DNA of 64,000 nt, taken from contig NZ_CM001024.1 of NCBI RefSeq assembly GCF_000160775.2, forward strand, positions 2,222,686-2,286,685, read 5' to 3'. Source of the DNA: Aeromicrobium marinum DSM 15272. GTDB lineage: Bacteria > Actinomycetota > Actinomycetes > Propionibacteriales > Nocardioidaceae. The position numbers were made by a program, and so were the translations under genes. Numbering within the stretch: position 1 is the stretch's first letter; the number at the start of each line of letters is the position of its first letter. Shown here piece by piece: positions 27,542 through 48,024 of the stretch. Under the pieces are notes generated by a model, which was given only the letters and a program-made list of their open reading frames with translations, was not told where the DNA came from and searched no databases.

Positions 27542-27617
27542 GGGGCTCTAGCTCAACTGGCAGAGCAGCGGACTTTTAATCCGCGGGTTGTGGGTTCGAG
27601 TCCCACGGGCCCTACCA
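27542..27617 (+). tRNA. tRNA-Lys(TTT)
   Basis: A 76-base cloverleaf with encoded CCA. The acceptor GGGGCTC pairs with GGGCCCT, the anticodon stem GCGGA/TCCGC closes a CTTTTAA loop with anticodon TTT, and the T arm is GTGGG-TTCGAGT-CCCAC. Its 3' half is the integration site of the downstream mobile element, which restores the gene sequence. Confidence 0.95.
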
Positions 27618-28794
27618 GGAATCCCCCCTGCGCTTGCAGCGAAGCGGCCGAATCGGTCGCCCTGGGGAGCGCCGCAACACCGGTCCCAGTCCGCAGGTAG
27701 TCCGCACGAGCTCCAGAAGCGGTCGTTTCAAGGCGCTCCGCGAGGGCATCCATGTCCTCGTCAAACAGGTCCGCGTAGACGTCCAGCGTCATGGCGGCAC
27801 TCGCGTGACCGAGCATCTTTTGCACCGCCTTGACGTTGGCGCCGGCCGACACTGCGATGCTCGCGGCGGTGTGCCGAAGGCCGTGCGGCGTGATGTGCGG
27901 GAGTCCTGCCCGGGCGACCGCCGGATCGAAGTCCCGGCGGCGGAAGTTCCGCAGATGAAGCCATCCGCCGCCGGGGGCGGCGAAGAGTGGATCGTCCGGA
28001 CCGCGACCGTCAATCAACGCTTCGAGCTCGACGGCCAGACTCTTCGTGATGGGGACTGTCCTCGTGGCGTGGCTCTTGGTAGTGCCGAACACCAGACTTC
28101 CCCGGACCTCCGAGATGGACCGCCGCACATGGATACGACGCCCCAGGAGGTCGACGTCCGACACTCGGAGCGCAGACGCCTCGCCCCACCTGAGTCCTGT
28201 GTAGCCCAAGGTGAGGATCAAGACCCTTCCGTCCCCTGCCGCTCCGGCTAGAGCCTCGAGTTGGCGCGGAGTCAGGTACTTCTTGGCGCGGTCTCTCTGC
28301 ACGGGCGGCACCATGGAGCGTGATCGCCCGCTCGCGGGCTTGGCCGAGTTCCGCGCTAATCGCCCATCCTCTACGGCAAGGTCGAGCATCATCGTCAGCA
28401 CCTGATAGGCCTGTTTCGTGCGGGAAGCGCTTAGCGGCCTGCCGTTCTGCTGGCGCATTCCGGCGACCCACGCCTTCACGTCGGCCAGGGCGACGGACTC
28501 CAGCCGCACCGCTCCCCAGCGCGGCAGGACGTGGCAACGCAGGAGCGATTCGTACGACTCCATCGTCTTGGGCTTCACGACCAGCGTCGCCAGCCACGTC
28601 TCCGCCCATTCGGAGACGGTGATGCGGGACATTTCGGGGTCGACCCACTCCCCGCGCCGAACCTTCCGCTCCTGCTCGTCGGCCCACGTCCTCGCTTCAC
28701 CCTTCGTGGGGAATGTCTTGGTGCGCTCCCGGCCGGCCTTATCGCGATAGCGCCCCAACCACCTGCCGGGGCCGCGCCTCGTCGCGCTAGCCAT
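27553..28794 (-). CDS. Tyrosine site-specific recombinase (integrase)
   Basis: Phage-type integrase, 413 aa. There is an N-terminal arm-binding region (about 10-60, PGRWLGRYRDKAGRERTK), a SAM-like core-binding domain (MSRITVSEWAETWL) and the catalytic domain with Arg in LGYTGLRWGEA, Lys in TKSHATRT, HGLRH, and the late His and Tyr in LGHASAAMTLDVYADLF. The ATG at 28794 overlaps the stop of the upstream gene. The last 20 or so codons run through the att repeat into the tRNA gene, so the tail (GLEPTTRGLKVRC) is host sequence in disguise; in the excised circle the C-terminus could differ. Confidence 0.93.
   Translation of the reverse strand: MASATRRGPGRWLGRYRDKAGRERTKTFPTKGEARTWADEQERKVRRGEWVDPEMSRITVSEWAETWLATLVVKPKTMESYESLLRCHVLPRWGAVRLESVALADVKAWVAGMRQQNGRPLSASRTKQAYQVLTMMLDLAVEDGRLARNSAKPASGRSRSMVPPVQRDRAKKYLTPRQLEALAGAAGDGRVLILTLGYTGLRWGEASALRVSDVDLLGRRIHVRRSISEVRGSLVFGTTKSHATRTVPITKSLAVELEALIDGRGPDDPLFAAPGGGWLHLRNFRRRDFDPAVARAGLPHITPHGLRHTAASIAVSAGANVKAVQKMLGHASAAMTLDVYADLFDEDMDALAERLETTASGARADYLRTGTGVAALPRATDSAASLQAQGGFLVGPVGLEPTTRGLKVRCSAS
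27573..27619 (+). repeat. attL: 3' end of tRNA-Lys, copy 1 of 3
   Basis: A 47-bp segment from the anticodon loop to two bases past CCA. It is repeated exactly at 47924-47970 and, with one mismatch over 41 bp, at 50195-50235. Only this copy is part of a whole tRNA gene. Confidence 0.93.
27688..27706 (+). promoter_or_regulatory. Candidate integrase arm-type sites, left end
   Basis: AGTCCGCA occurs at 27688-27695 and again at 27699-27706, an 11-bp period. A matching pair with the same period lies near the right att copy at 47797-47815. Paired short repeats flanking att cores are typical of integrase arm-binding sites. Confidence 0.5.
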
Positions 28795-29374
28795 CCGACC
28801 CACCCGCTTCTCCTGCCTGCTGTTCCAGCAGCGCAACGGCAGCCGGGGTCAGGCTCCCGCCGTCGCCCTCGTCCGGTCGTGTGAGCAGTCCCCTATCGCG
28901 GGCCACGCGAATCCGTGCACTCAGTGTGTTTCGACTGATGCCATAGCGAACAGAAAGGTTCTTGATGGGGTTCCGCTGACCCGCGGCCACGGCATCGGCA
29001 TAGATCCTCGCGAGCAGAGCAAAATCTCGATCCGTCGAGAAGCGCGAGGGAATTGGATCCATGTAGCCATGAGTCTGCGCCCACTCAAGCTTGGCGCGCT
29101 TGATCCGTCGGCGCGCATCTTGCATCGGCACCGCGCGCAACACGTCGCCGGTAAGCAACTCGTCCCTAGACGACTCCTCTGCCCTCCCGTCCTCATCTAC
29201 GAACGGTTCGACGGTGAGAGTCTCCGGGCCGGTATCGAGACCCGAGGTTGCCGAGCGGATCGTAACCATCCAAAGATCGAGCACTCGGTACCTCACCTCT
29301 ACGTCGTCGTCCACATCTGATCCGGAGAGCTCCGACACCAGCTCAGCCCCATCCGTAATTCGCGTGTAGGTCAT
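28787..29374 (-). CDS. Predicted DNA-binding regulator of the element
   Basis: A 195-aa protein I cannot assign to a named family. The N-terminal half is acidic and beta-rich. The C-terminal half has a helix-turn-helix-like segment, NPIKNLSVRYGISRNTLSARIRVAR-type (about residues 125-165), followed by a short helical tail. It is cotranscribed with the integrase, overlapping its start by eight bases. It is divergent from the Xis-like gene, the usual place for an element repressor or activator. Confidence 0.6.
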   Translation of the reverse strand: MTYTRITDGAELVSELSGSDVDDDVEVRYRVLDLWMVTIRSATSGLDTGPETLTVEPFVDEDGRAEESSRDELLTGDVLRAVPMQDARRRIKRAKLEWAQTHGYMDPIPSRFSTDRDFALLARIYADAVAAGQRNPIKNLSVRYGISRNTLSARIRVARDRGLLTRPDEGDGGSLTPAAVALLEQQAGEAGGSDG

Positions 29375-29489
29375 GGGTCGAGATTAACACACGACACGCG
29401 GCAAGAGGCCCTTGTAGCGGCGTCTAGGTATTCGTAGATTGGTCTCGTTGGCCCCAGCCGTATGGCCCTTCGACCTTGAGTCACCCGCC

Positions 29490-29540
29490 AGGCATGCGTG
29501 GTCCAAATTTCGCCCATCGCGGCTGAGCAGCCGCATGCCT
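29490..29540. promoter_or_regulatory. Inverted repeat in the divergent regulatory gap
   Basis: AGGCATGCG at 29490-29498 is repeated inverted as CGCATGCCT at 29532-29540, within the 178-base gap between the divergent regulator/integrase and Xis operons. It could be an operator or a looped site. It ends 12 bases before the Xis start. Confidence 0.4.
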
Positions 29541-29552
29541 ACAGGAGCTTCA

Positions 29553-29747
29553 ATGCCCACCACCATTGCTGAGCCGTTTTGCGACACCGAGGAAGCAGCG
29601 GCCTTCCTCCACAAGCCGCCCAGCTGGGTGTATGCCAATGCGGGGCGCCTCAGGATCCCCCGCTACAAGGTCGGCAATCACTGGCGCTACCGACTGAGTG
29701 AGCTGGCCTCGTGGGTCGAGTCCCACGCGTCAGGGTCGCTCAAGTGA
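29553..29747 (+). CDS. Excisionase-like helix-turn-helix protein
   Basis: A 64-aa MerR-like/excisionase-family DNA-binding protein: CDTEEAAAFLHKPPSWVYAN forms the winged-helix entry and IPRYKVGNHWRYRLSELASWV the wing and recognition part. Such proteins direct integrase toward excision or act as element regulators. AGGAG lies six bases before the ATG at 29553. Its stop overlaps the next start (GTGA), so it heads the rightward operon. Confidence 0.8.
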   Translation: MPTTIAEPFCDTEEAAAFLHKPPSWVYANAGRLRIPRYKVGNHWRYRLSELASWVESHASGSLK

Positions 29748-30046
29748 CGGCTGCATCGGCCTTCGCCGACGCCCGCCCAGTTGGCCCAGCGATCAATGAG
29801 GAACAGACGAGGCTGGTCATCAGGGCCGGCGACCGGGTCGAGGAACTCCACGCGCAGTACGCCAAGGCGGTCCATGACTGGCGGAGAGCCCGCGGCGTGC
29901 AGGTCACCCCGGCGTTCGCTGAGGTGCAGCGCCTTGTTCTCGCCATCGACGTCGCTGAAGCTGAACTCGATAGAGCGCAGGCAGGTGGGCCCGTTGCCGT
30001 TCACCCCTTTGGCCCACGACGTCGGTCCACAGGTGGTTGCTTGTGA
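29744..30046 (+). CDS. 100-aa hypothetical protein, helical
   Basis: Begins at a GTG overlapping the Xis stop and ends just inside the start of the ATPase gene. It is mostly helical (NEEQTRLVIRAGDRVEELHA; EVQRLVLAIDVAEAELDRA), possibly a short coiled coil. I recognise no domain. Its position between the Xis-like and ATPase genes suggests a replication or regulation accessory. Confidence 0.6.
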   Translation: MTAASAFADARPVGPAINEEQTRLVIRAGDRVEELHAQYAKAVHDWRRARGVQVTPAFAEVQRLVLAIDVAEAELDRAQAGGPVAVHPFGPRRRSTGGCL

Positions 30047-30999
30047 TCAGCCTCAAGCGACTCGAGGACGTGGAACTCACGGCCTACGAAGACTCGTTCC
30101 TCATCGGCGACCTACTGACCAATCGCGCCACCATACTTAGTGGCGAACCGAAGTCCGGCAAGACGCTCTTGGCGGCGGGCATGGTGATCGCCCTACTCAA
30201 CGGTGAAGACACCTTCCTGGATCTGCCGATCTTCCGACAGGCACACCACGTCGTCTTTGGCCTCACCGACGACGGCGCAGAGGAAGAGCTCAAGGCCCGC
30301 CTGCACGATGCGGTCCCCCCGGGCAGCGTGAGCGTCTTCTCGATCCGTGAGCCGGGCGAACCCGACTACTGGGTCACGGTGCGCGACAAACTCGCAGAGT
30401 CAGGGGCGGACCTGTTCGTTCTCGACAACATGCTGGGCTCGTTGAAGGCTGGAGAAGACATCGCCAACTCCGTCACCGGGCAGGGCATCGTCACAATTCT
30501 TCGCATCCTGACCGGCAGCGGTGTCCCGGTGCTGGCGATAACCCACACGCCGAAGGGCAACTCCGAGGGCCTGTCGGTTTCCTCTTCGGTCATTGGCGGC
30601 CGAGCTATCGCTGCCGGTGCGCGTGGAGTAGCAACCCTCCGCAATAGCCAGAAGCAGGGACGCCGTTTGGCCACGGCAATGAACCGCGGCCACCAAGAGC
30701 TAGACATCAGGGTCAGCGTGGAGCGACGGTCCCCGGACTCCGAGGTGCCTGTCTGGAGCCGTGCTATCGCACCTGCCGCGGAATCCAAGAAGCGCAATCG
30801 GGCCGGGGACGACGCCGTGAACATGGGGCGCCTTGCCGACTACCTCGTTGCCGAGCAGCCGGCGGACGCCGGCAGCTTCAGGGCCGTCGCTGAGAAGCAT
30901 GCCCAGCAGTTCCGGGTGTCGAAGAACAAGGCCCAGCGAGGACTGAAGAACTTCGCCCACCTGGACGGCGGCAAGTGGATTGCCGGGGCCAAGCCGTGA
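30043..30999 (+). CDS. RecA-like/RepA-type AAA ATPase
   Basis: A 318-aa RecA-fold ATPase of the AAA_25/RepA type found in plasmids, phages and satellites, where hexamers act as replicative helicases. Walker A is GEPKSGKTLL near residue 40, Walker B DLFVLDNMLGS near 125-136, and the sensor segment VLAITHTPKG follows. A C-terminal winged-helix-like tail (FRAVAEKHAQQFRVSKNKAQRGL) may bind DNA. It starts at the GTG 30043 after AGGTGG; an upstream TTG at 30037 is possible. It suggests the element can replicate after excision. Confidence 0.78.
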   Translation: MISLKRLEDVELTAYEDSFLIGDLLTNRATILSGEPKSGKTLLAAGMVIALLNGEDTFLDLPIFRQAHHVVFGLTDDGAEEELKARLHDAVPPGSVSVFSIREPGEPDYWVTVRDKLAESGADLFVLDNMLGSLKAGEDIANSVTGQGIVTILRILTGSGVPVLAITHTPKGNSEGLSVSSSVIGGRAIAAGARGVATLRNSQKQGRRLATAMNRGHQELDIRVSVERRSPDSEVPVWSRAIAPAAESKKRNRAGDDAVNMGRLADYLVAEQPADAGSFRAVAEKHAQQFRVSKNKAQRGLKNFAHLDGGKWIAGAKP

Positions 31000-31446
31000 C
31001 CTCGCGTGCGGCGTGCGTGTGTGCGTACCCCCCCTTAGTAGAACCCCCCGCACGCACACACATGAAAAACGCCGGGGCGACCCTAGGAGCACCGGCACGC
31101 CGGGCCGCAGGGAGCGCGCTGACGACGCCTGCGGGCGTCGACAGGCGCCGAGTAGCCATGACGCACGTAGGCACTCTGCCCTGGGCAGAGCGCCGGGCGC
31201 GCAATGAGGGCGTCGTGGGACTCCGCCCTGTCGCTGGTCCCGGTAGAGCGCTTCAGCGCTCTCCATTCACGTCCGTCCCGGTCAGGCGTGCGGTAGCTCG
31301 CCTGCGTTGACCTCTGGGCCGCTGGTCTGACGACCAGCCCCGGTTTCTGTTTCGTCCGTTCGCTGCGCACCAGCGCAGCGCCCATCCATTCCCCCTTTGG
31401 GGGCATCGCTGCCGGTGCCCTCCTGGGGCACCCGTTAGGGGTACTC
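31000..31446 (+). promoter_or_regulatory. Hairpin-dense noncoding leader or origin candidate
   Basis: I see no convincing gene in these 447 bases. There is a row of hairpins: 31174-31190 (CTCTGCC/GGCAGAG), 31245-31262 (AGAGCGCT/AGCGCTCT), 31321-31338 (GCTGGTC/GACCAGC), 31361-31380 (CGCTGCGC/GCGCAGCG), a CCCCC-TTT-GGGGG stem near 31391-31403 and GGTGCC/GGCACC near 31415-31433. They lie between the ATPase and SNF2 genes. This could be a structured 5' leader, a small RNA, or an origin of replication or transfer; none is proven. Confidence 0.5.
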
Positions 31447-32874
31447 ATGATCGACACCTTGTCCGCCCCGGACATCTTCACTGGCTCACTTGAACCGCAC
31501 CAGCTCGACGCTGCCGACTGGCTGATGGACCACCCTCGCGCGCTCTTGGCCGACGACGTCGGCTTGGGCAAGACCGTCGAGGCGATCGCCTACATCGCTC
31601 GCTTGGACTACGCAGGCGAGCTGCCTGAAGGTCGCACGTCGGTCATCTGGATCACTGAGGCGAGCCTGCTGAAGCAGACGGCCGAGGAGTTCGCTCGCTT
31701 CGCTCCCAGCCTGGCCGTGCTGACGTCCGACGATCGTCTCTTCGAGCCCGGCGGAAGCACGCTGCGCTGGGCGAGGTTCCATTCGAAATTCCCGTCTGGC
31801 GTGGACGTGGTGGTCGTGTCGCACGAACTGGCCGGCAATCGTGGCAGCGTCCTCAACGACAGGTTCGGTACCCCACCCCTTGTGGTGATCGACGAGGCGA
31901 TGGCGCTGAAGAGCGGCGGACCACGCCACACCAGGATTTCCGAGATCACGGCGGCTGCCACGCGGGTGTTGGCGATGACAGCGACGCCGTACGAGAACTC
32001 GCCGCTTGAGACATACAACATTCTGCGTCTGCTGCACCTGCCGGACCTCTGGACGTCCGGTGAGTTCGACAGCCGCTTCGTGGAGTGGGCGCCCGCGTAT
32101 CAGATTCCAGGTACGTGGAAGACGGTTCCGGCGAGGCCGCTGGGGGTGCGGCCGGAGGCCCGGGCCGAGCTTGCTGCCTACCTGCACAAGGTGATGCTTC
32201 GGCGGACGGTGGAAGACATCGGGGGTGCCGTGCCCGTTCGGGTTGGTGAGCAGGTGCGCTGGGTTGAGCTCTCGTCGGAACAGGCTGATGCGTACGACGT
32301 CGCCGCTCAGAACCGCGGCGGTGTCGGGCACATCCGGCGCACGGTCGCTGCCCGTGGGGCGGGTGACAGCTCTGCGCTGGTGGACGAGTTCATGCGCTAC
32401 CTGGACTCACCGAAGACCCCGTCGAAGGTGATCGTCTACTGCGAAACGCTCGGGATCATCCACATGGTGTGCGAGCGGCTTGAGGCCGCCGGTATCGGCC
32501 ACGTCAGCATCGAAGGCGCCAACAAGGCACCCGACCGGACCATCGCCCTTGCGGCGTTCCGAGACCGGCCAGAGGTCCGCGTGCTCGTTGGCTCGAAAGT
32601 CCTCGAGCTCGGTCTGAACATTCAGCACTGCAACGCCCTCGTGACGCTCGACTGCTCCGACAACCCGCAACGGGAGCGCCAGCGGGAGGGCCGCATCCGA
32701 CGGCTGGGGTCGCCGCACGAGACGTACACGCATCTGACCCTCATGCCGGAGACCCCGACGGCGCGCAAGAAGTGGCAGACGCTCGAGCGCAAACGACGCG
32801 AAGCCGAAGCGCTGCTCAGGCGCCAGGACAACCAGACGACCGACCCCACCACCACGTACGGAGATCACCGATGA
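31447..32874 (+). CDS. SNF2-family DEAD/DEAH-like helicase
   Basis: A 475-aa superfamily 2 helicase with SNF2-type order: DDVGLGKTVEAIAYIARL (motif I), VIWITEASLL, VVVSHELAG, VVIDEAMALK (motif II, DEAM instead of DEAH), MTATPYENS (motif III), then the helicase C domain with KVIVYCETLGI and a degenerate motif VI in RQREGRIRRLG. It is compact and lacks a visible targeting domain. Phages often carry such short SNF2-like helicases for recombination or replication. The stop overlaps the start of the giant gene (ATGA), so they are coupled. Confidence 0.85.
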   Translation: MIDTLSAPDIFTGSLEPHQLDAADWLMDHPRALLADDVGLGKTVEAIAYIARLDYAGELPEGRTSVIWITEASLLKQTAEEFARFAPSLAVLTSDDRLFEPGGSTLRWARFHSKFPSGVDVVVVSHELAGNRGSVLNDRFGTPPLVVIDEAMALKSGGPRHTRISEITAAATRVLAMTATPYENSPLETYNILRLLHLPDLWTSGEFDSRFVEWAPAYQIPGTWKTVPARPLGVRPEARAELAAYLHKVMLRRTVEDIGGAVPVRVGEQVRWVELSSEQADAYDVAAQNRGGVGHIRRTVAARGAGDSSALVDEFMRYLDSPKTPSKVIVYCETLGIIHMVCERLEAAGIGHVSIEGANKAPDRTIALAAFRDRPEVRVLVGSKVLELGLNIQHCNALVTLDCSDNPQRERQREGRIRRLGSPHETYTHLTLMPETPTARKKWQTLERKRREAEALLRRQDNQTTDPTTTYGDHR

Positions 32875-35800
32875 GCAACTTCCTCAACGACCTGTGGGAG
32901 AAGACGAAGAACACAGGCAAGGCGACGATCCAGATCGCCACGCTCCCCGCGGGCCTCGCCATGGATGTGGCGCGGCAGCTGCCGGGCACTGAGGCGCTGG
33001 ATGATGGTCCGGCCGGCTTCTTCACCGGCAAGGGCGCCGCTGACTTCCTGATCGGCGAGGGCACCCTGACCGGCTGGTCAGTGAACCGCGCCGGCGAGGG
33101 CCTGGACTGGACGTACCGCAACGCGATCGAGAACCCGATCGAGACGACCTGGTTGAAGTTCTCGTCGTGGGCGTCGCACGACTCGTGGTCGCCGAACGCT
33201 GGCATCTCGTGGGCTGAGGCGTGGGAACGCTCCCGCGAGCGCAGCCTCGGACAGACGTTGCAGCTGGTTGGCAACGAGATGGCTGAGACGGTGCGTGATG
33301 GCACCGGCCTCAACACCCAGGATGCCATCGGGTCTATCCCGTTTGTGGGCGCGTACTTGTCTGGTGCTGGCATCGGCGTCGAGGAGAACAGCGACATCGT
33401 CGCGGCAGACCGTGACGCCTGGGCTGAGTTTCAGGAGTATTCGCCGTTCTGGTCGGGCGCGTTGGCGACGACCACGGACCTCAGCGCGCAGGTCGCGCTT
33501 GACCCGTTCCTGCTGGCGGCGAAGCCGCTGGGCGCCCTGCGCCAGGCCCGCAACCAGCGCCCCGTCCGCGAGGGCGAGGAGAACAACCTCGCCGAGCTGA
33601 TGGCGACGGAAGACCGGGGCGAGGTGCCGGTCTTCGGGATGACGTTCTCGCAGCGTCGCGCGGGCCTGCGCTCGCGCACGGACCCACTGATCGGGACGAC
33701 GAAGTCTGAGACGGTTTTCGAGGACGGCGTCGCCGTGTTCGACGAGGCCGGGAACCCGGTCGAGCGCGTCGTTACCGACAGGGCTGGCTGGCTGGATGGC
33801 AAGTCGGCGACGCAGGTGTACGCAGGTCTGAACCTGCGCACGCATGCGTACGGCACGGAGATTGCCACGCTGCTGTCGCGCACGAACCAGATCGCTGATG
33901 CCGGCGCGCGGGTGGATACCCGCCGCGACATCCTCGCGGCCATGGGCGGCGATCCGACTGCGATGGGCCGCCTGGCTGAGCGCGCGGAGACGGAGGAGTT
34001 CTCCTACGTCCTGTCGAACGCGATGCGCGCCCGCGGTGACGGCAGCCTCCAGGTGGCGATCACTGACGAGATGAACGCTGCCGCGATCGCCCGCGGAGAG
34101 GCTCTCCCCGCCTACTCCGATCCGGCCGTCGTGGCCGGCATTGAGCGTGAGATCACGTCCGCCGAGGGCTACTCCACGTGGCTGTACGGCGCGATGAAGG
34201 ACCGCACCTTCCGGGTGAGTCCTGGCGGGCAGCGCGCGCTGGCGCGGCTGGATCGCCGCGGCCTTGGCCGCGACGGCACCCTGAACACTGGCTTTGAGCG
34301 TGTCGACAACTTCGTCAACGACCGCATGCTGGGTCGCTGGCGCTCCAACGGCTCACCCGTGGACGAGGCTCTGGCGGCCTCTGACGAGCTGAACCCGGCA
34401 CCGCTGGCTGATGATGCCCTCGCCAACGGTCGCGTGTACCAGCCGGAGCGCTCGGTGCGGTTCACCTCGAGCAATGGCACGCCTGCCATCGCCATCCGTT
34501 CGGGCCTGAAGACGGCCGGCTGGGTTGCCGGCGGCTGGATTCCGAAGGCAGGCGCCGCGGTGTCGGACGCCTTGCGCGGTCGCGTCACCCACGGCTCTCT
34601 GAATGTCGAAGACCCGCACCTGTCGGTGGCTGTCGCGCAGGACATGGCCCGCCGCGCCGGCCTTGCACCGGAGCGCGTGCAGGCCCTCACCGACGGCGTG
34701 ATCGCCGCGGAGACTGCGCCGGCGCGCGCCATCGCTGTCGCCCGCGCCCAGGACGAGGCGATGGCTGCCATCGCTGAGCGCTACGGCGTCGACAAGGACA
34801 CCCTGGCGGCCATCTCGCAGGACCACTCGAAGCGTGCCGAGGCTGTCGCTGCCGCCATGCGCGGTCAGTCGTACAGCGGCCACGTGCGTGTGGGTGACGA
34901 CGGTCGCCCCACACGCGGCGACGTGATGATGCTGCCCGACGAGGGCGGCACCGTGGTCGCGCCGATCCTCAACACGCAGACCGCGAACCACATGCTGCTG
35001 ATGGACCTGGACTACGTCGAGGCGTGGCTGAAGCGTGACAACGTGCTCGCTTCGGTGAGCGCGGTACTGCGCAACGGCCGCAACCCGAACCCGCTGGTGG
35101 CTCGCGCCAACGAGGCCGGTTTCAACTCGAAGGTGACGAGCACCTGGAAGGGCACGTCGGACCGCCTGGTGCGTGTTGGCGCTGAGCGCAGCAACACGTG
35201 GTGGAAGCGTTCGGTGCTCCTGCTGCGTGCCCCGTCGTACGCGGCGCGCAACTCCATCGAGGAGGAGCTGCGCGTGATGGCTGTCGGCCGCACCGCGGCC
35301 GTGACCGACGAGGCTGTCGCGCAGGCGTACCATGACGCCCGTGACTTCGCCCGCCGTCGTGGCTGGACGAAGGATCAGGTCAACGAGTCTCTGCCGGCGT
35401 TCACCGAGCTGAACCTCGCTCGGACGCGCTTGGCGGACCTGACCGAGGATGCCTCCGACCCGGACCTCGCCGCCGAGGTCGCCACGATCAAGGCGGAGCT
35501 GAAGCGACTGCGGAGCCAGCGTGAACGACAGTTGAAGGATGGCGGTGACGTCGCGCAGGTGGATGCTCGAATCGCGTACCTCGAGTCGCGCCCCGCCCTG
35601 CTCGAGCAGGCGCAGTGGAGCGAGGAGGCTGCGGCGCTGCGCGCCCAGGTGGAGTCCCTCGAGGCCGCCCTGAAAGACCCGCAGTTCTCGGGCCAGGGCA
35701 CTCGCACGCTGCCCGGCTTCGGCGACACGCAGTTCCCGAACGCTTTCGAGGGCAGCCGCGGCGCCATCTACCGCGAGCTGTCGAAGACCAGCCAGTTCGA

Positions 35801-38177
35801 CAATGATGTCACCGGTTTCGCTGACGGCACCTACGCCCGCTTCCGCGGGCTGGGAGAGGCTGTCGATATTGACGTGTCCGTGGCCGGCACGCCGCAGGAC
35901 GTCATTGACCGCCACGGCGAGGCTTGGTCCTGGATTCTGAACAAGCAGATTGCTCAGGATGCGGCCGGCCGGGTGGTTCTCCGTGGCATGGCTGACGAGC
36001 TCGAGCCTGACGAGATCGTGGCCCGCGTGCAGCGCTTCCTGAAGTCCGACGAAGGCCGGGACTACCGCAACGGCAACATCGTCCGCCACCACGACCCGGA
36101 CGCGTGGGCCGAGGAGATCACCGACATGGTGATGCACTACGCCCCCACGTCGAACCTGTCGCGGAACCTCCTCGAGCGCGAGGTCGGCTTCGACGAGTTG
36201 CAGGCGGCGTTCCCGGACCACACTGTGCGCCCCCGGGCGCACCCCGCCGGCGTGGATTCCCTGATCGGCGTCAAGGCCGGTCGCATCGACCGGTGGTCTG
36301 CGCACGCCTTCCAATGGATCGACAAGATGTCGGTGCAGCGCATGACACGCCACCCCATGTTCAAGGTGCACTTCGAGGCGGAGCAGACGCGCCTCGCCGG
36401 CGACTACCTGCGCAAGGCGCAGCTTGAGCGCGGCGACGACGCCATGATCTCACTGGACGAGATCAACGACATCACGGAGCAGGCTCGCCGCTCGGCGGCG
36501 CTGAACGTGCGTCGCACCTTCTACGACACCACGTCGCGTTCGCACGCGGCGGAGAAGATGAAGTACCTGTACCCGTTCTTCGCGGCGCACCAGGACTCCA
36601 TGTCGTTCTGGGGTCGCGCCATCGCGCAGCGACCTGAGGTGCTGCGCGGGTTGCAGATCGCGTTCAACCAGCCGTATGCGCTGGGTCTGGTCGTTGACCA
36701 GGACGGCAACGTGGTGGAGCCGGGCGAGGGCATCCTCGAGTCGGATCACCGGGTGCTGTTGCAGGTGCCGGCCGCTTGGGGCGGACCGGACCCGGAAGAT
36801 CCGACACAGCAGGGAACCGGGTGGAGCGTCAACATCAACTCCGCCAACCTGATCACGCAGAACGGGTCCATCCTGAATCCAGGTGCCGGTCCGCTAGCTG
36901 CGATCCCGGCCGCGTACATCGCCACCAAGTTCGGCTCCTCTGATGAGCGAATCGGCGGCATGATGCGCTGGTTCAACGCCTTCGGCGCCCCGAACACGGG
37001 TGACAATCCGCTGCTGCCGGAGGCACTGCAAGCACTCGACCAAGCGATTCCGACGCCGATCAAGCGACTCGGCACCTTGTTTGATGCCTACAGCCAGAAG
37101 CACTCGCGTGAGTTCGTCGACATGTGGTCGATCAAGTTCCAAGAGGCTCAGGTCGAGTTCCACGAGAAGTACGATCGCCCCCCGAACTCGCAGGAGGCGG
37201 CCGAGCTCGAGCGCGAGGTCGACGAGGTCGTGAAGTCGATGGCGCTCCTGCGAGCGTTCTCCTCGATCCTGTCGCCGGTGCAGCCCCGGCCCCAGTCCAA
37301 GTTCGAGGGCTTCATCAAGGAGTACCAGCGTCTCGCCGACGAGGGCCGCAACAGCGGCCAGGGCTGGGCCTGGGCCACCGACAAGTTCCTTGACCGCTAT
37401 GGCGAGGAGTACATCTACCTGACGCGTTCGTCGTCGGAGTACCGGGCCAACATCGACCCGACGACGGCGACGGTGCGCGCGCTGAAGGCGTACGAAGACC
37501 TCACTGAGGACACGCCGCCGGAGGTGTGGCAGGCGATTGTCGGCGGCGAGGGTGAGGGTGCGTTCAGCATCGACGCCTACCGCTGGATGCAGCAGAAGGA
37601 CATCGCCCTGACCCAGGGCGGGGGCAAGCTGATCGACCGCAAGAGCGTGCGTGACGCCATGTTCTCGACTGCTGTCAGCGCCGGCTACCGCGAGTACAAC
37701 AAGGCGATGGACCTGTTGCAGTCCATCGCCACGCAGAACGGTCTGGTGTCGCCGAACGATCACCCCGAACTGCGCAGACTCCGCGCGGAGGTCATCGACG
37801 AGCTGTCTGAGCGGTTCCCGCAGTGGGCGGAGAACCGGATCGGTAAGCGCGACTACGAGTCGACGATCCTGCCTGGCCTACGGAAGGTTGCCGCTGATCG
37901 GCGGCTGTCGCGCGACCCTGCCCGTGGTGACATCCGAGCACTCAACGACTACCTGTTCTACCGCGGAGTCATCGTCGATGAACTCCAGAAGCGCGTAGAC
38001 GCAGGAGAACCTGGCTCGATCACGGCGCAGGCGAACGCCGACATCCTCACGCTGTTCGTGGGGATGGTGGACGAGCTGAGCGAGAGCAATACCCACTTCG
38101 CCAACTATCACGTCCCGGGTCTGATCGACCGTGACCCCTTGTACCGCCCCGACCTAATTGGAGAGACGACCAGATGA
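32871..38177 (+). CDS. Giant 1,768-aa phage-like protein, unknown function
   Basis: The largest gene of the element. It is not repetitive and has no signal peptide. Visible parts: an N-terminal hydrophobic or amphipathic stretch (residues 15-35), a Gly-rich hydrophobic segment SIPFVGAYLSGAGIGV (about 150-165), a charged coiled-coil region (about 855-940), and a YLYPFFAAHQDSMSFWGRAI segment near 1230-1250 like the aromatic F-F-x-A motif of very large phage and polyvalent proteins. The C-terminus is helical and charged. Size and amphipathic segments fit an internal virion/ejection protein or a polyvalent MGE protein; this is inference. GGAG precedes the ATG, which overlaps the helicase stop. 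Confidence 0.7.
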   Translation: MSNFLNDLWEKTKNTGKATIQIATLPAGLAMDVARQLPGTEALDDGPAGFFTGKGAADFLIGEGTLTGWSVNRAGEGLDWTYRNAIENPIETTWLKFSSWASHDSWSPNAGISWAEAWERSRERSLGQTLQLVGNEMAETVRDGTGLNTQDAIGSIPFVGAYLSGAGIGVEENSDIVAADRDAWAEFQEYSPFWSGALATTTDLSAQVALDPFLLAAKPLGALRQARNQRPVREGEENNLAELMATEDRGEVPVFGMTFSQRRAGLRSRTDPLIGTTKSETVFEDGVAVFDEAGNPVERVVTDRAGWLDGKSATQVYAGLNLRTHAYGTEIATLLSRTNQIADAGARVDTRRDILAAMGGDPTAMGRLAERAETEEFSYVLSNAMRARGDGSLQVAITDEMNAAAIARGEALPAYSDPAVVAGIEREITSAEGYSTWLYGAMKDRTFRVSPGGQRALARLDRRGLGRDGTLNTGFERVDNFVNDRMLGRWRSNGSPVDEALAASDELNPAPLADDALANGRVYQPERSVRFTSSNGTPAIAIRSGLKTAGWVAGGWIPKAGAAVSDALRGRVTHGSLNVEDPHLSVAVAQDMARRAGLAPERVQALTDGVIAAETAPARAIAVARAQDEAMAAIAERYGVDKDTLAAISQDHSKRAEAVAAAMRGQSYSGHVRVGDDGRPTRGDVMMLPDEGGTVVAPILNTQTANHMLLMDLDYVEAWLKRDNVLASVSAVLRNGRNPNPLVARANEAGFNSKVTSTWKGTSDRLVRVGAERSNTWWKRSVLLLRAPSYAARNSIEEELRVMAVGRTAAVTDEAVAQAYHDARDFARRRGWTKDQVNESLPAFTELNLARTRLADLTEDASDPDLAAEVATIKAELKRLRSQRERQLKDGGDVAQVDARIAYLESRPALLEQAQWSEEAAALRAQVESLEAALKDPQFSGQGTRTLPGFGDTQFPNAFEGSRGAIYRELSKTSQFDNDVTGFADGTYARFRGLGEAVDIDVSVAGTPQDVIDRHGEAWSWILNKQIAQDAAGRVVLRGMADELEPDEIVARVQRFLKSDEGRDYRNGNIVRHHDPDAWAEEITDMVMHYAPTSNLSRNLLEREVGFDELQAAFPDHTVRPRAHPAGVDSLIGVKAGRIDRWSAHAFQWIDKMSVQRMTRHPMFKVHFEAEQTRLAGDYLRKAQLERGDDAMISLDEINDITEQARRSAALNVRRTFYDTTSRSHAAEKMKYLYPFFAAHQDSMSFWGRAIAQRPEVLRGLQIAFNQPYALGLVVDQDGNVVEPGEGILESDHRVLLQVPAAWGGPDPEDPTQQGTGWSVNINSANLITQNGSILNPGAGPLAAIPAAYIATKFGSSDERIGGMMRWFNAFGAPNTGDNPLLPEALQALDQAIPTPIKRLGTLFDAYSQKHSREFVDMWSIKFQEAQVEFHEKYDRPPNSQEAAELEREVDEVVKSMALLRAFSSILSPVQPRPQSKFEGFIKEYQRLADEGRNSGQGWAWATDKFLDRYGEEYIYLTRSSSEYRANIDPTTATVRALKAYEDLTEDTPPEVWQAIVGGEGEGAFSIDAYRWMQQKDIALTQGGGKLIDRKSVRDAMFSTAVSAGYREYNKAMDLLQSIATQNGLVSPNDHPELRRLRAEVIDELSERFPQWAENRIGKRDYESTILPGLRKVAADRRLSRDPARGDIRALNDYLFYRGVIVDELQKRVDAGEPGSITAQANADILTLFVGMVDELSESNTHFANYHVPGLIDRDPLYRPDLIGETTR

Positions 38178-39028
38178 GTACCTTGCTTGAACTCTTGATG
38201 CGCGCCGCCCGAGGCGGAAGCCAGACCGAACGGCCACGTCCAAGCGGCAGCAAACTGTCACAGATCCAAGCCTTGGCGGAGGGCCGAATCAATCTGTCCG
38301 ACCTGGGTGGCGGCGGCACCGCTCGCCGCGAGGATGAGGGCGGCGTGTGGCTGGGCGAGTGGGGCCGCAATGGCGGTATCCGCTCCGGCGTCAGCCCGAC
38401 CTACGCCTCGAACCTGCCGCTTGGCTGGTCGCAGAAGAAGCAGCAGCAGGCGTTCGACCGCATGTCCAACGCCTACGGCGTCCCGGTCGGGCTGGACGAC
38501 TTTCTGGGCGAGTGGGATGCGGCTGTGAAGCTTGCTGCGCGCTCCTGGGAGGCGACGAACGGGGGCAAGACCGGCACCCCGCTGTCCGTGTGGGATGTGA
38601 TCGACCTGCGCGCCCGCTCCGCCGGCGGCAGCGGTGGCCGCGGCGGTGGTGGTGGCGGTGGTCGCCCTCGCACGATCACACAGACGTCGCGCACCATCAA
38701 CGAGATCACCGAGGGTGGCGCGTGGGCGCTGATGACGGACGCCGCGCGTCAGGCATTGGGCCGTGCCCCGACGGATGAGGAGGTGCGCGCGTTCGCGCAG
38801 CGCGCCAACCAGATCGCGTCGGCGAACCCGCAGATCACCAAGAGCACGATGACGCAGAACGCGGACGGCTCGTCGCAGACGACGAACACGACCGTGCAGC
38901 CTGGCGCCACCGGCGACGACTTCGCACTCGAGGCGAAGAAGATGACGGACACGCCTGAGGCCGGCGCCTACCAGGCGTCGACCACGTACTTCGATGCGCT
39001 CATGCGGGGCATCGGCTCGGTGGTGTGA
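38174..39028 (+). CDS. 284-aa phage-like protein with Gly-rich linker
   Basis: Starts by overlapping the giant gene's stop (ATGA). An N-terminal domain of about 145 residues contains WGRNGGIRSGVSPTYASNLP and FDRMSNAYGVPVGLDDFLGEW. A poly-Gly linker (about 155-168) follows. The C-terminal domain holds ALMTDAARQALGRAPTDEEVRAF-like helices and a Thr/Gln-rich strand region. I do not recognise a family. Coupling to the giant gene suggests both act in the same particle or complex. Confidence 0.65.
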   Translation: MSTLLELLMRAARGGSQTERPRPSGSKLSQIQALAEGRINLSDLGGGGTARREDEGGVWLGEWGRNGGIRSGVSPTYASNLPLGWSQKKQQQAFDRMSNAYGVPVGLDDFLGEWDAAVKLAARSWEATNGGKTGTPLSVWDVIDLRARSAGGSGGRGGGGGGGRPRTITQTSRTINEITEGGAWALMTDAARQALGRAPTDEEVRAFAQRANQIASANPQITKSTMTQNADGSSQTTNTTVQPGATGDDFALEAKKMTDTPEAGAYQASTTYFDALMRGIGSVV

Positions 39029-39124
39029 TGGTGACCGCCACAATCACTGCATGACCGTTTGACCTGTCCCGAGTTCCCCGGACACCGATGTTGGAGCGAG
39101 AATCGCTTCACGAGAGGAGTCTGG

Positions 39125-39412
39125 ATGCCTGCAGCAAAGCCCGAGGAGTTCCGTCGCAGGGCGGTGGAGTTGGCGCGGTCCGGTGACAAGCCGGTGGCGC
39201 AGATCGCGAAGGACTTGGGGATCAGCGAGTCCGGTCTTCGCCGGTGGATGGCGCAGGCCGAGGTCGAGAACGGTGAGCGTCCCGGTTTGAGCAAGGACGA
39301 GCGGTCCGAGCTGGTGCGTCTTCGTCGTGAGAATCGTGTTCAGGCGATGGAGATCGAGATCCTGAAGCGGGCGTCGGCGTACTTCGCCAAGGAGAACGTC
39401 CTCCCAAAATAG
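39125..39412 (+). CDS. IS3-family transposase OrfA
   Basis: A 95-aa DNA-binding subunit: a helix-turn-helix (PVAQIAKDLGISESGLRRWM) recognises the IS ends, and a C-terminal leucine-zipper helix (ELVRLRRENRVQAMEIEILKRA) dimerises. AGGAG precedes the ATG at 39125. A CCCAAAA slippery heptamer at 39403-39409, just before the stop, allows -1 frameshifting to make the OrfAB transposase. Confidence 0.9.
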   Translation: MPAAKPEEFRRRAVELARSGDKPVAQIAKDLGISESGLRRWMAQAEVENGERPGLSKDERSELVRLRRENRVQAMEIEILKRASAYFAKENVLPK

Positions 39413-40284
39413 GGTTCCGGCTGGTCCACGAGCTCGCCGCGGATGGCTTTGCCGTCGCGGTGATCTGCCGGGTCCTGGGTGTCTCGACGTCGGGCTACTA
39501 CGAGTGGCGCAGCCGGCCGCCATCGGCGCGTGATGTCGCCGACGCGCACCTGCTGAACGTCATCCGCGAGATCCATGCCGCGTCGCGGCAGACCTACGGG
39601 GTCCGGCGGGTCCACGCCGAACTGCGCCTGGGCCGCCAGATCCGGTGCAGTCGCGGCCGGGTCGAACGGCTCATGGTCCTGGGCGGCCTGCAGGGTGTTC
39701 ACCGCCGCAAATGGCGCCACGCAGGTGGCCGGTCGCCGGCGGTGTTCGAGGACCACGTCAGACGCGAGTTCGTTGCTGATGCGCCCGACAAGCTGTGGGT
39801 CACCGACATCACCCAACACAGAACCGTCGAAGGGTGGGTCTACTGCGCTGCGGTGATCGACGTCTACTCCCGCCGATGCGTCGGGTGGTCGATCGCCGAT
39901 CACCTGCGCACCGAGTTGGTCGTCGACGCGATCGACATGGCCAGATGGCGTCGCAAGCCGTTGCCGGGAACGGTGGTCCACTCCGACCGCGGAACCCAGT
40001 TCACGTCCTGGCTGTTCGGCAACCGGCTCCGCGAGGCCGGACTGATGGGATCGATGGGCAAGGTCGCCTGCGCCTACGACAACTCCCTCATGGAGTCGTT
40101 CTTCGGCTCGATGCAGATCGAACTGCTCGACCGCCGGAACTGGTCAACCCGCGCCGAGCTGGCCAACGGGATCTTCGAGTGGATCGAAGCGTTCTACAAC
40201 CCGACCCGCCGCCACTCGAGCCTGGACTACCTCAGCCCAATCGAGTACGAAACCCTTCACACCGCCACCGACCAAGCGGCATGA
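39409..40284 (+). CDS. IS3-family transposase OrfB (DDE catalytic part)
   Basis: Catalytic part of the transposase, made as an OrfAB fusion by -1 frameshift at CCCAAAA. The N-terminal HTH_21 segment (ASRQTYGVRRVHAEL) precedes the RNase-H-like core with catalytic D in LWVTDITQH, D in VVHSDRGTQF and E in NSLMESFFGSM. The C-terminus FYNPTRRHSSLDYLSP is typical of IS3. Alone it could start at the GTG 39460. Confidence 0.9.
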   Translation: MGFRLVHELAADGFAVAVICRVLGVSTSGYYEWRSRPPSARDVADAHLLNVIREIHAASRQTYGVRRVHAELRLGRQIRCSRGRVERLMVLGGLQGVHRRKWRHAGGRSPAVFEDHVRREFVADAPDKLWVTDITQHRTVEGWVYCAAVIDVYSRRCVGWSIADHLRTELVVDAIDMARWRRKPLPGTVVHSDRGTQFTSWLFGNRLREAGLMGSMGKVACAYDNSLMESFFGSMQIELLDRRNWSTRAELANGIFEWIEAFYNPTRRHSSLDYLSPIEYETLHTATDQAA

Positions 40285-40702
40285 TCAACACACAAGAACC
40301 GTCCGGGAAACCCGGGACAGGTCAGTTCGCAACAACATCGCAGCAGTTCTGACTGCGGCTTTCGTCGGTGGCCTGACAGGGTCGGGCGCAGTCCTCCTAC
40401 TTGGCCCGGATGAAGGCCCGCGCGGTGAACGTGGTCCGCGCGGGCCTGAGGGTCAGGCGGGCGCGGTCTACCCACTTCCGTCCGGGTCCGGCTTCTTGCA
40501 GCACCAGTTCGATTTCTGTCCATCGGGCACAAGAACCGGAGGGCTGATCGCCGAGTACCGATCGTCGTTCCCGGGTGAACAGGAGATTTTCGACTTCCTT
40601 GAGGTTTGCATCGTCAGGTAGCACGGGCTCGACTCTTCTCGACCACCCACCCATGCGATCACGCAGAACCAGGAGAACCATCAGTAGGTTCGGGAACGAC
40701 GA

Positions 40703-40732
40703 AAGGCCCCACGCCGTTAAGCGTGGGGCCTT
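40703..40732. terminator. Hairpin terminator T1
   Basis: A perfect 12-bp stem AAGGCCCCACGC/GCGTGGGGCCTT with a six-base loop. It lies directly after the stop of the small minus-strand membrane-protein gene. Nearly the same sequence recurs at 46823-46846 beside the second small membrane-protein gene. Confidence 0.8.
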
Positions 40733-40742
40733 TGTCGTGAGT

Positions 40743-40922
40743 TCAGAAAACGTAGTAGATGAGGGCGCTGATGCCGGCCCACAGGCCGATGCCATAGAAC
40801 AGGGCCAGCGCTCCGTAGAACAGGGCTGTCGACCACGGCCACCGCTGGAACTGTCCGCGCACCGTCGTCGCCGGATGCGTGTACCACTTCTCCGCCCGGG
40901 GCACTGGGTACCTGTCCGTCAT
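40743..40922 (-). CDS. 59-aa small membrane protein, copy 1
   Basis: Begins MTDRYPVPRAEKWYTH at the ATG 40922 and ends in one long hydrophobic segment (about residues 30-58, TALFYGALALFYGIGLWAG). It resembles the 68-aa protein at 46860-47066 in layout (MTD start, Arg-rich middle, single C-terminal helix) and in the shared terminator after the stop. Its function is unknown; a holin-like or phage-exclusion role is possible but unsupported. Confidence 0.6.
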   Translation of the reverse strand: MTDRYPVPRAEKWYTHPATTVRGQFQRWPWSTALFYGALALFYGIGLWAGISALIYYVF

Positions 40923-41013: not shown

Positions 41014-41142
41014 ACGCGCCTGCGCGCGTCAGGAGAAGCGACGAAACAGGTCCTCGAAACCGTTGGGGGTACGAATACCCCACCGTGAGGCTGATAGACG
41101 GTGTACGGCTAGCGGTTGTAACGATTTCGACCTCAAGAGGGA
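41014..41142 (+). repeat. Direct repeat R1, about 129 bp
   Basis: About 80% identical to 46691-46820 in the same orientation. Both copies contain AAGCGACGAAACAGG, a GGGGTA/TACCCC six-bp hairpin with a four-base loop, and ACGGCTAGCGGTTGTA. The gap 40923-41233 around it has no gene that I can support; it also holds a CAAGAGG/CCTCTTG hairpin at 41134-41149. The repeats bracket the cargo block. Confidence 0.8.
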
Positions 41143-42512: not shown

Positions 42513-43391
42513 CTATGGGGCACTGGCAAGAAGGCTCTCGGCCTCGTGAGCAATGGAAGCCTCGTCACCAGCCGCATACGCCTTCACGTCCAGATCATCC
42601 CAGGCCGACTTTGCAGCACTGAACGCTGAGTGCTGTTCTGTCGTCTCGGGTGGCACGTAGAGCACCCGCACTGGCACGTCTGGGTCGACCTCAGCAATCG
42701 GGTTCTTCCTTCGCGCACTGTTCCTCACCTCACCGCCGCGTCGTCGCAGCTGGCCGACCGCGAAGCTCCAGGCCTGTACGTCCTGGAGCAAGTTGTCCAT
42801 GCCTTGGCGCTGGAATGAAACGACACGCGAGAGCTGCCTCACATGCTCGCTGCCAATCGCAAACTCAAAATGGGCAACCTGCTTCATCGTCTCGAGTTTG
42901 ACGTCTCGCTGAATCTGGCGGGGACGGATTCCCTGCCCGCCGAGGTATGCCTCACCGAGCCTCGTCACTGCCTCAGCGCGTGCCGTACGTCCGCGCCCCA
43001 GCGGTGGTTCGAGCACCAGTGCGGGAAAGAGGCGAGACACAGCTTCAGTTGCCGACTCGGCCGCAACGGGTGTGCCTTCCGAAATCTGTACAGAGTTGTT
43101 TAGTCGACCCCTCTGATGCTCAAGCCACGCGAGCGATGGCGGACGTGACTCGTATCCCGGTTCGTGATCGAGATCGAGGTATCGCACATCCGTCTGGCCG
43201 AATCGGCGTTCCAGTCGATTCAGCCAATACTCAGCACGGCTAGCGTCGCCGCCCAGCTTCGATGCACGCCTCAGGGAGATGACGCGACGCATGTCCCAAT
43301 CGCCATCAGCGTTGCCTACTACGACTCCGATGTTTACGAACTCGGCGCGCAATGAGTCAGGTACGTACCGGAGCACCCAGTACTTGTACAT
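42513..43391 (-). CDS. DUF3037 domain protein
   Basis: A 292-aa protein starting MYKYWVLRYVPDSLRAEFVNIGVVV, the DUF3037 hallmark. A middle charged part and a C-terminal domain (EFAIGSEHVRQLSRVVSFQRQGMDNLL; VRVLYVPPETTEQH) follow. GGAGG lies eight bases before the ATG at 43391. It begins 17 bases after a HipA-like kinase gene. DUF3037 genes are regularly paired with such kinases; the joint function is not established. Confidence 0.85.
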   Translation of the reverse strand: MYKYWVLRYVPDSLRAEFVNIGVVVGNADGDWDMRRVISLRRASKLGGDASRAEYWLNRLERRFGQTDVRYLDLDHEPGYESRPPSLAWLEHQRGRLNNSVQISEGTPVAAESATEAVSRLFPALVLEPPLGRGRTARAEAVTRLGEAYLGGQGIRPRQIQRDVKLETMKQVAHFEFAIGSEHVRQLSRVVSFQRQGMDNLLQDVQAWSFAVGQLRRRGGEVRNSARRKNPIAEVDPDVPVRVLYVPPETTEQHSAFSAAKSAWDDLDVKAYAAGDEASIAHEAESLLASAP

Positions 43392-43407
43392 CGAAGTCAC
43401 CTCCATC

Positions 43408-44196
43408 TCAGTGCGCAGCCCGAGCTGATAATTCTCGCAGACGCTGGGCGACCGGTCCTCGACGACGATAGAGCGCCCATGCGACAGTCTCGAGTTCCGA
43501 TTCCGAGACCCCCCACTCAACTGGAACAGAAGCCACTGCCCCAATGAGTTGCTGCGGAGTCACACCCTCAAGCCTGACAGCAGCTGCCTCGAATGCCTCG
43601 GGGTTACTCCCGGCGACTGGACCTCCCCACCTCCAGTCACGATCCACCATGGTGGCAAGTGACTCGGCATCCCAGCCGGGGCCTCCGCCTAGCCACCAGC
43701 CGTGGTCGAAGGTCCACATTGCGTAGTCCTTTGACTGATCGAACAGCCACTGTTCGTCGTCCCCCATGCACCAGTCCCAGAGCGCGAAGAAAGACGGCAT
43801 CCTGTCCGGGTTGCCATCACGGCGGGAGTAGACGAGGCGGTCGCCTTCCTCGGCAGAGTCCAGTACGAGCGAACCGTGGGCGATGCCTGGCCTTAGGCGG
43901 TGAAACGTCGCGTACTCCCAGCCGCTCAATGCCTCCGGGACTTCGATCAACTCGACCTTGACCGCGGGAGCTTCAATCAGCATCGCTGCTGCGGCGACGA
44001 TCTGTTCTGCGCTCAGAATCTCGTCGCCCTGAGCATTCCCAGGCACCTTCAACCAGTACGAGCGGCCGTCGTCCGCCAATCCTAGAAACGCGTTTGACCC
44101 TGACCCGCTCTTCCGAACTGGCGCGATAAGCCTCACAGCGGGACGGCCTCGCGGGGCTCCGGCTAGTGCCCCGTTCCAATCGGCGCGATCGAACAT
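43408..44196 (-). CDS. HipA-like kinase-fold protein
   Basis: A 262-aa protein resembling the short HipA_2 family encoded beside DUF3037. Features seen are RLIAPVRKSGSGSNAFLGLADDGRSYWLKVPGN, with a P-loop-like Gly/Ser stretch and the lysine that would bind ATP, then EYATFHRLRPG, and the late WTFDHGWWLGGGPGW with the Asp expected to bind Mg. The usual N-x-D-R-x-x-N loop is altered (WCMGDDEQWLF), so activity is uncertain. It is the first gene of the two-gene unit. Confidence 0.78.
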   Translation of the reverse strand: MFDRADWNGALAGAPRGRPAVRLIAPVRKSGSGSNAFLGLADDGRSYWLKVPGNAQGDEILSAEQIVAAAAMLIEAPAVKVELIEVPEALSGWEYATFHRLRPGIAHGSLVLDSAEEGDRLVYSRRDGNPDRMPSFFALWDWCMGDDEQWLFDQSKDYAMWTFDHGWWLGGGPGWDAESLATMVDRDWRWGGPVAGSNPEAFEAAAVRLEGVTPQQLIGAVASVPVEWGVSESELETVAWALYRRRGPVAQRLRELSARAAH

Positions 44197-45057: not shown

Positions 45058-45216
45058 CTGTAGGGGCCAGATCCGGCAGAAGGCCACCGGTCCTCTCACA
45101 CGCAGCCGCCTCTAGGTGGTCCGACGAGCACTGATGATCGGCGTTCTCGCTATAACCGGTACACACGCCTGAAATGGCTCGTAGCCTGACGGTTGATCCA
45201 AGGTCAGGTACATGCA

Positions 45217-46846: not shown

Positions 46847-46859
46847 CTTTGTCGTGCGC

Positions 46860-47970: not shown

Positions 47971-48024
47971 CGGTTCCGGCGAAATGTCACTGTTGGACTC
48001 CCCCGACTTGGGGTCATCGGCCCT

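What the first reader, a model, noticed from the sequence alone, without database searches (positions are those of the whole stretch)
27553..40922. Phage-like element with RecA-like ATPase, SNF2 helicase and a giant protein but no capsid or terminase
Int, regulator, Xis, RepA-like ATPase, SNF2-type helicase, a 1,768-aa protein and a coupled 284-aa protein form an ordered operon with overlapping starts. No structural, packaging or conjugation genes are recognisable. This may be a satellite or replicating island family that has not been described; the giant protein would be its hallmark.
Basis: inference. Interest (0 to 1): 0.8.

Follow-up and report, generated by a model that had tools for sequence, protein, structure and literature searches.

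The report
Integrated island with podovirus virion genes
A 20-kb mobile island in a bacterial chromosome carries its own integration and replication genes plus two genes related to particle-module genes of short-tailed phages, but no shell or packaging genes; it is either a phage parasite that relies on another phage to move, or the remains of a phage.

Summary
At a tRNA-Lys gene, between 47/47-identical repeats 20.35 kb apart, lie int, regulator, Xis-like HTH, AAA ATPase, SNF2 helicase, an intact 1,768-aa ORF and a coupled 284-aa ORF, with no terminase, portal or capsid found. The giant is not a new hallmark: it and the 284-aa protein are homologs of two adjacent late-module genes of Streptomyces Beephvirinae (short-tailed) phages. 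In IMG/VR, 59 of 59 giant loci and 79 of 80 284-aa loci carry terminase, portal or capsid; the 80th carries tail-module genes.

What is unusual: here the pair sits alone, start-stop coupled to an SNF2 helicase. One other genus has an island with homologous regulator, Xis-like protein and SNF2 in the same order, also at a tRNA-Lys, with a broken giant of another branch and no portal. A recent IS with a clean target duplication lies just after the 284-aa gene, so the IS did not remove the missing genes.

I favour a satellite-like element carrying its own ejection-type virion proteins (0.40), nearly tied with a reduced prophage (0.38). No helper, packaging site, excision or transfer is shown.

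The parts
27542..27617 (+). tRNA-Lys (ttt), integration site
   Evidence: ARAGORN; Rfam tRNA
27573..27619 (+). left att repeat (47/47 identical to 47924-47970)
27553..28794 (-). tyrosine integrase, 413 aa; 3' end overlaps the tRNA
   Evidence: Pfam Phage_integrase E 7e-24; best phage match 38.7% Gordonia phage Finkle
28787..29374 (-). winged-helix type regulator, 195 aa
   Evidence: phrog_11473; 36% to G236 counterpart
29553..29747 (+). Xis-like HTH_17 protein, 64 aa (role inferred)
   Evidence: HTH_17 E 4e-10; 48% to G236 counterpart
29744..30046 (+). 100-aa ORF, no family match
   Evidence: GTGA overlaps at both ends; no Pfam match
30043..30999 (+). AAA_25 (RepA-like) ATPase, likely replication
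   Evidence: AAA_25 E 3e-9
31447..32874 (+). SNF2-type helicase, 475 aa
   Evidence: 43% to G236
32871..38177 (+). giant protein, 1,768 aa, homolog of Beephvirinae late-module giant
   Evidence: phrog_10618 E 2e-54; 29 phage records; end-to-end alignment
38174..39028 (+). 284-aa protein, homolog of the gene next to the giant in Beephvirinae
   Evidence: phrog_13037 E 7e-18; 29 phage records; alignment
39060..40324 (+). IS3-type insertion sequence, 1,265 bp, GTT duplication at 39057-39059 and 40325-40327
   Evidence: 24-nt end repeats 92% complementary; two further 100% full copies in the genome; Pfam rve and HTH_Tnp_1
40325..40621 (+). open frame of 98 codons right of the IS; hydrophobic stretch, then a short collagen-like run
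   Evidence: Pfam Collagen E 0.007, below the curated cut-off
40702..40733 (.). perfect 13-bp inverted repeat, possible end of operon (not listed as a terminator by the scan)
42513..44196 (-). cargo: DUF3037 gene and overlapping HipA_2-like ORF (below curated cut-off)
45193..46662 (+). cargo: DUF2510, GmrSD_C (HNH-type) and Excalibur domains, 489 aa
47924..47970 (+). right att repeat

Best explanation
An integrative, satellite-like element of short-tailed (Beephvirinae-like) phages. Shown: it sits in tRNA-Lys between 47-bp perfect repeats; it encodes integrase, Xis-like, regulator, AAA_25 ATPase and SNF2 genes; it has an intact, start-stop coupled pair of virion-module genes (giant and 284-aa); no terminase, portal, scaffold or capsid was found. 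Inferred: when a related short-tailed phage infects or is induced, it excises, replicates with its own ATPase and helicase and is packaged in the helper's particle. Its own giant (an ejection or internal virion type protein) and 284-aa partner then join or replace the helper's, which would favour its own delivery. Between such events it carries cargo genes, some defence-like.
For: att repeats and tRNA. Giant ORF unbroken over 1,768 codons with GC3 0.86, SNF2 0.83, 284-aa 0.85. ATGA overlaps join SNF2-giant-284. The IS after the 284-aa gene is recent with a clean 3-bp duplication, and the frame to its right ends at 40621 with no module profile hit beyond. A second island (G236) at another tRNA-Lys shares regulator 36%, HTH_17 48%, SNF2 43%, order and a giant remnant. 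This SNF2 type was found at E<=1e-40 in 2 of 288 family genomes, both with a giant beside it. The giants of the two islands come from different branches (AU p 1.2e-7), as expected if the slot is refilled from different phages. G236 cargo scores as PD-Lambda-2 and cll defence parts.
Against: Only one intact example. The G236 giant is broken, its N-terminal part is not statistically recognisable and the 284-aa gene is absent, so portal and terminase could have been deleted there. The G236 replication protein is of another type and the integrases are only generically alike (29% over part). No helper prophage with this portal in the same genome. No packaging site, excision, induction or virion data. 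The ejection role rests on position and a low-confidence helical model without fold match. The tree has long branches.
Confidence: 0.4

Rival explanations
1. A reduced (defective) prophage of a temperate Beephvirinae-like phage: terminase to portal and tail to capsid were lost, leaving int, replication genes and two virion genes, later joined by cargo and an IS.
For: All recognised relatives of giant plus 284-aa outside the islands are in virion modules (59 of 59 and 79 of 80 IMG/VR loci with terminase, portal or capsid). A prophage with the module exists in the same family, G013, and others in G677 and G832. Decay of such elements is seen: G236 giant broken, G050 giant fragment beside an integrase fragment.
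Against: Two losses would have to leave an exact ATGA overlap with SNF2 and an intact 284-aa gene; the IS caused no loss. No SNF2 of this kind in any of the 59 or 80 viral loci within the held flanks, nor in the four viral records searched whole (which had no positive control). In G013, 12 of 13 called genes just before the late module are on the other strand, so a simple deletion of such a prophage would not give this operon.
Confidence: 0.38
2. A chromosomal interference island: giant and 284-aa protein act as decoys that poison assembly or ejection of infecting short-tailed phages; mobility is secondary or lost.
For: Isolated virion-type genes beside defence-like cargo: RelA/SpoT gene PDC-S33 next door (E 1e-46), DUF3037 gene weakly PDC-M66B; in G236 PD-Lambda-2 and cll.
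Against: Expression outside infection is unknown; perfect att repeats and an intact integrase suggest recent or present mobility.
Confidence: 0.12
3. An actinomycete integrative conjugative element (AICE) or plasmid-like island that picked up phage genes.
For: int, xis and replication genes at a tRNA resemble AICE left parts (recalled).
Against: No FtsK/SpoIIIE-type transfer domain among the 20 island ORFs scanned with Pfam, some of which are probably not genes; no plasmid match for giant or ATPase.
Confidence: 0.05

Closest known systems
Beephvirinae short-tailed Streptomyces phages (Dennebes, Immanuel3, Manuel, Stella read here; phrog_10618 and phrog_13037)
   Same: Giant and 280-aa genes adjacent and in the same order; giants align end to end at 23-24%, 280-aa proteins at 29-30%
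   Different: Here no other late gene; integrase and SNF2 present; upstream neighbour is SNF2 instead of small genes behind a portal
Prophage in genome G013 and IMG/VR contigs L020-L024, L026 (nearest giants)
   Same: Nearest giant branch (100/99); 29% giant to G013; 284-aa best match 41% in the L024 contig
   Different: They have capsid, and portal or terminase where the held stretch reaches; no SNF2 of this type
Phage satellites (PICI, P4-like; Streptomyces MiniFlayer and MulchRoom, PMC10690885)
   Same: Small integrated unit with its own int and replication genes (PICI and P4: recalled); MulchRoom also has integrase plus regulator (paper, Results part 1)
   Different: MiniFlayer and MulchRoom encode terminase, portal and capsid and lack primase (paper); here it is the reverse: replication genes, no shell, ejection-type virion genes
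Podovirus ejection proteins (T7 gp15/gp16 type, PMC8954989)
   Same: Large, helical, fast-diverging proteins in small gene clusters (passages); C-terminal giant model is mostly helical
   Different: No sequence or fold match to solved proteins; 1,768 aa is above the 609-1,337 aa quoted for gp16-like proteins

Membership tests
Beephvirinae-type phage or complete prophage | giant and 280-aa genes of the late module | tested here: met
Beephvirinae-type phage or complete prophage | terminase, portal, scaffold, capsid, tail genes | tested here: not met
   19 of 21 profiles without a hit in 64 kb; 13 of 21 hit in G013. Portal profile: no hit in the window's genome; the hit in G013 is by construction, since G013 is in that profile
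Phage satellite (general) | integrase and att-bounded integration at a tRNA | tested here: met
Phage satellite (general) | own replication or regulation genes, incomplete or no virion set | tested here: met
   AAA_25, SNF2 and regulator; no terminase, portal or capsid
Phage satellite (general) | induction, packaging and transfer by a helper phage | not testable with these tools
   needs phage and strain; no helper candidate in the genome
Capsid-encoding satellites (cf-PICI; MiniFlayer, MulchRoom) | own capsid, portal, terminase | tested here: not met
   profiles are of Beephvirinae type only, other capsid types were sought only among the scanned ORFs
AICE | FtsK/SpoIIIE-type transfer gene | tested here: inconclusive
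   none among 20 island ORFs scanned, not every ORF
Podovirus ejection proteins | located inside virions and ejected | not testable with these tools
   position beside portal and tail genes in phages and a helical model of low confidence only

The most novel reading that the evidence does not exclude
A class of actinobacterial tRNA-integrated phage satellites that carry replication genes and, instead of capsid or packaging genes, their own copy of a helper-type ejection apparatus (giant plus 280-aa partner), taken again and again from different phage lineages into a fixed slot after an SNF2 helicase, so that the satellite takes over the entry step of the helper particle rather than its shell.
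Probability: 0.25. Interest if true: 0.78.

Novelty: new variant of a known kind. Interest (0 to 1): 0.5.

Why it matters
Known satellites are described as taking over a helper's shell, packaging motor or tail (recalled). An element that keeps only ejection-type virion genes would add DNA delivery as a point of attack, and would offer a way to test what the uncharacterised giant protein of Streptomyces short-tailed phages does. If it is only a reduced prophage, it still adds an integrase-bearing relative of this phage group in another actinobacterial family and shows that its giant gene can outlast the rest of the module.

Tried and rejected
Rejected: the giant as an orphan hallmark. Rejected: IS-caused deletion as the reason for the missing late genes. 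The regulator search gave 14 of 341 genomes: the window, G236 and 12 weaker ones. I fetched 10 of those 12 neighbourhoods (G151 and G167 not); they hold no giant, SNF2 or integrase of this kind, so they look like plain HTH matches. Giant hits in G144 and G292 were not confirmed by the profile on called genes. G667 has a 1,488-aa ORF with a weak giant-like stretch (profile 42 bits; PHROG E 0.003) and no recognised portal: left as a lead. That the 155-aa ORF in G236 is the giant's N-terminus is not established: with one profile it ranked second of 201 behind a shuffle; with a wide profile it fell among the shuffles; with a third profile it ranked first after the G013 giant itself among 130 called proteins, at E 0.1. 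My note states that start as fact and is superseded. Scans with no relative found: giant in IMG/VR and genome contigs, alignment A1 in genome contigs, ATPase in IMG/VR, ATPase in phages, regulator in phages, giant and ATPase in plasmids. SNF2: 121 phage records, all under 60% and about 25% in the best rows; 6 weak IMG/VR loci; plasmids only distant, best listed rows about 25-28%. Fold and sequence searches against solved structures gave no usable match.

Limits: the genome search holds one genome per species and draws part of a group. Neighbourhood tables use a home-made gene caller and profiles from four Beephvirinae genomes. In the scripts the Xis query was in a wrong frame and the 100-aa ORF query was empty, so they say nothing about those two; Xis was redone. 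The viral loci share many contigs, so 59 and 80 are not independent sets. Taxonomy was read for four of the 29 phage records (all Beephvirinae) and for Abafar from the paper. The host genus of the window is not known to me.
Full report
What is there. The window lies in a one-contig 3.08-Mb genome. A tRNA-Lys gene at 27542-27617 opens a unit of lower G+C (0.655 against 0.715 left and 0.721 right). Its 3' end is repeated 47/47 at 47924-47970 and 94% at 50186-50236, so the unit is 20.35 kb, with a second 2.3-kb repeat-flanked piece behind it. On the minus strand are the integrase and a regulator. On the plus strand follow a 64-aa HTH_17 (Xis-like) protein, a 100-aa ORF, an AAA_25 ATPase, a 447-bp gap, an SNF2-type helicase, the 1,768-aa giant and the 284-aa ORF. 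Four junctions are GTGA or ATGA overlaps.

What the two unknown genes are. The giant matches phrog_10618 (E 2e-54) and the 284-aa protein phrog_13037 (E 7e-18), both without known function. tblastn against 50,697 phage records finds each in 29 records, all Streptomyces phages. In the four genomes I read, all Beephvirinae, the two genes are neighbours in the late module: terminase, endolysin, portal, small genes, giant, 280-aa gene, tail genes, scaffold, capsid. Abafar, one of the 29, is podoviral by electron microscopy (PMC11536984, passages). The window giant aligns end to end with these giants (23-24% identity, 29% with G013), and the 284-aa protein at 29-34%.

Where else they occur. The giant alignment found 59 IMG/VR loci: 59 of 59 hold terminase, portal or capsid, and 0 of 59 this SNF2. 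The 284-aa alignment kept 80 loci of 95: 79 of 80 hold terminase, portal or capsid, the other (L144) holds giant and tail genes, and 0 of 80 this SNF2. Many contigs are in both sets. In genomes: the family draw of 294 gave 6 hits, namely the window, G013 (prophage), G236 (island), G050 (remnant), and G144 and G292, which the profile did not confirm. The order draw of 391 gave the window and G236. The genus of G236 (118) gave G236 only. The phylum draw of 326 gave the window, G677 and G832 (both with portal and other module genes), and a weak G667.

The rest of the module is missing here. Of 21 profiles from four Beephvirinae genomes, two hit in the 64-kb window and 13 in G013. A portal profile finds nothing in the window's genome, G236, G050 or G667; its hit in G013 is by construction, since G013 is one of its rows.

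Is it a deletion remnant? The IS at 39060-40324 has 24-nt ends that are 92% complementary, a GTT duplication and two further identical full copies in the genome. It is recent and took nothing away. To its right an open frame of 98 codons with a short collagen-like run (Pfam Collagen E 0.007, below cut-off) ends at 40621; a perfect 13-bp inverted repeat lies at 40702-40733, though the terminator scan does not list it. No module profile hits beyond. On the left the SNF2 stop and giant start overlap. In G013, 12 of 13 called genes just before the late module lie on the other strand, and 17 of 21 in the early half of contig G884, so a simple deletion of such a phage would not give this operon. G013 also has plus-strand genes after its late module, so more complex losses stay open.

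The second island. G236, another genus of the same family, has at another tRNA-Lys (ctt) a 15.9-kb unit bounded by a repeat of the tRNA end: int, a 69-aa HTH_17 ORF, regulator (36% to the window's), HTH_17 protein (48%), a 504-aa winged-helix replication-type protein unlike the window's ATPase, SNF2 (43%), 60-aa and 155-aa ORFs, and the C-terminal 663 aa of a giant. The integrases are only generically alike (29% over part). No portal, terminase or 284-aa gene was found. Its cargo includes Beta_protein and cll-like genes that score as PD-Lambda-2 and cll defence parts. This SNF2 type reaches E<=1e-40 in 2 of 288 family genomes, both with a giant beside it; a draw of 225 order genomes at E<=1e-45 gave the window only. 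Against this: the G236 giant is broken and its N-terminus not recognisable with significance, so portal and terminase may have been deleted there.

Ancestry of the giants. In trees of the conserved C-terminal part, the window giant groups with contig L024 (99/98; 100/98) and with the G013, L021, L022, L026 giants (100/99). The G236 giant falls outside, and holding the two islands together is rejected (AU p 1.2e-7), with the caution that G236 and L024 are long branches. If true, related islands took giants from different phage lineages into the same slot, or reduced different prophages in parallel.

Function. The C-terminal 1,009 residues are predicted mostly helical (pLDDT 65, pTM 0.34) and match nothing solved; the 284-aa model (pLDDT 74, pTM 0.43) matches nothing either. 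Large, helical, fast-diverging proteins in small clusters fit the ejection-protein description of PMC8954989 (passages), by position and build only.

Verdict. The giant is an ordinary late-module gene of a known phage group. What is out of the ordinary is its isolated, coupled, unbroken state in a tRNA island with its own replication genes, and a partial second case. I put satellite-like element at 0.40, reduced prophage at 0.38, interference island at 0.12, AICE-like at 0.05, the rest other. Five paper searches listed no paper whose title or abstract start describes a satellite carrying ejection-type virion proteins; only open-licence PubMed Central papers are held. Of the listed papers I saw PMC10690885 (outline, abstract, part 1 of Results) and passages of PMC11536984 and PMC8954989; the others only as listings.

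Noticed in passing
47971-50236: A 2.3-kb piece between two more att-like copies, without an integrase seen, holds a RelA/SpoT-domain gene (48748-49497) that scores as candidate defence family PDC-S33 (E 1e-46); it looks like an accreted repeat-flanked cassette.
   Followed up: partly
41020-41142 and 46698-46820; 40706-40748 and 46823-46865: Two pairs of repeats (83% over 123 nt; 93% over 43 nt including the hairpin) beside two small minus-strand ORFs; the 123-nt repeat occurs nowhere else in the genome. Role unknown.
   Followed up: partly
31000-31446: A 447-bp non-coding gap between ATPase and SNF2 with several short inverted repeats; possible origin or promoter region.
   Followed up: no
L202 (G667) 12360-18405: A 1,488-aa giant-like ORF with only weak similarity, beside a WhiB-type gene and with no recognised portal; possibly a second kind of isolated giant.
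   Followed up: partly
L013 (G050) 10058-11442: A giant N-terminal fragment directly before an integrase C-terminal fragment at a tRNA-Met: a worn remnant of a giant-bearing integrated element.
   Followed up: partly
42513-44196: A DUF3037 gene and an overlapping HipA_2-like ORF on the minus strand, a pair that may be a defence or toxin-type system.
   Followed up: no
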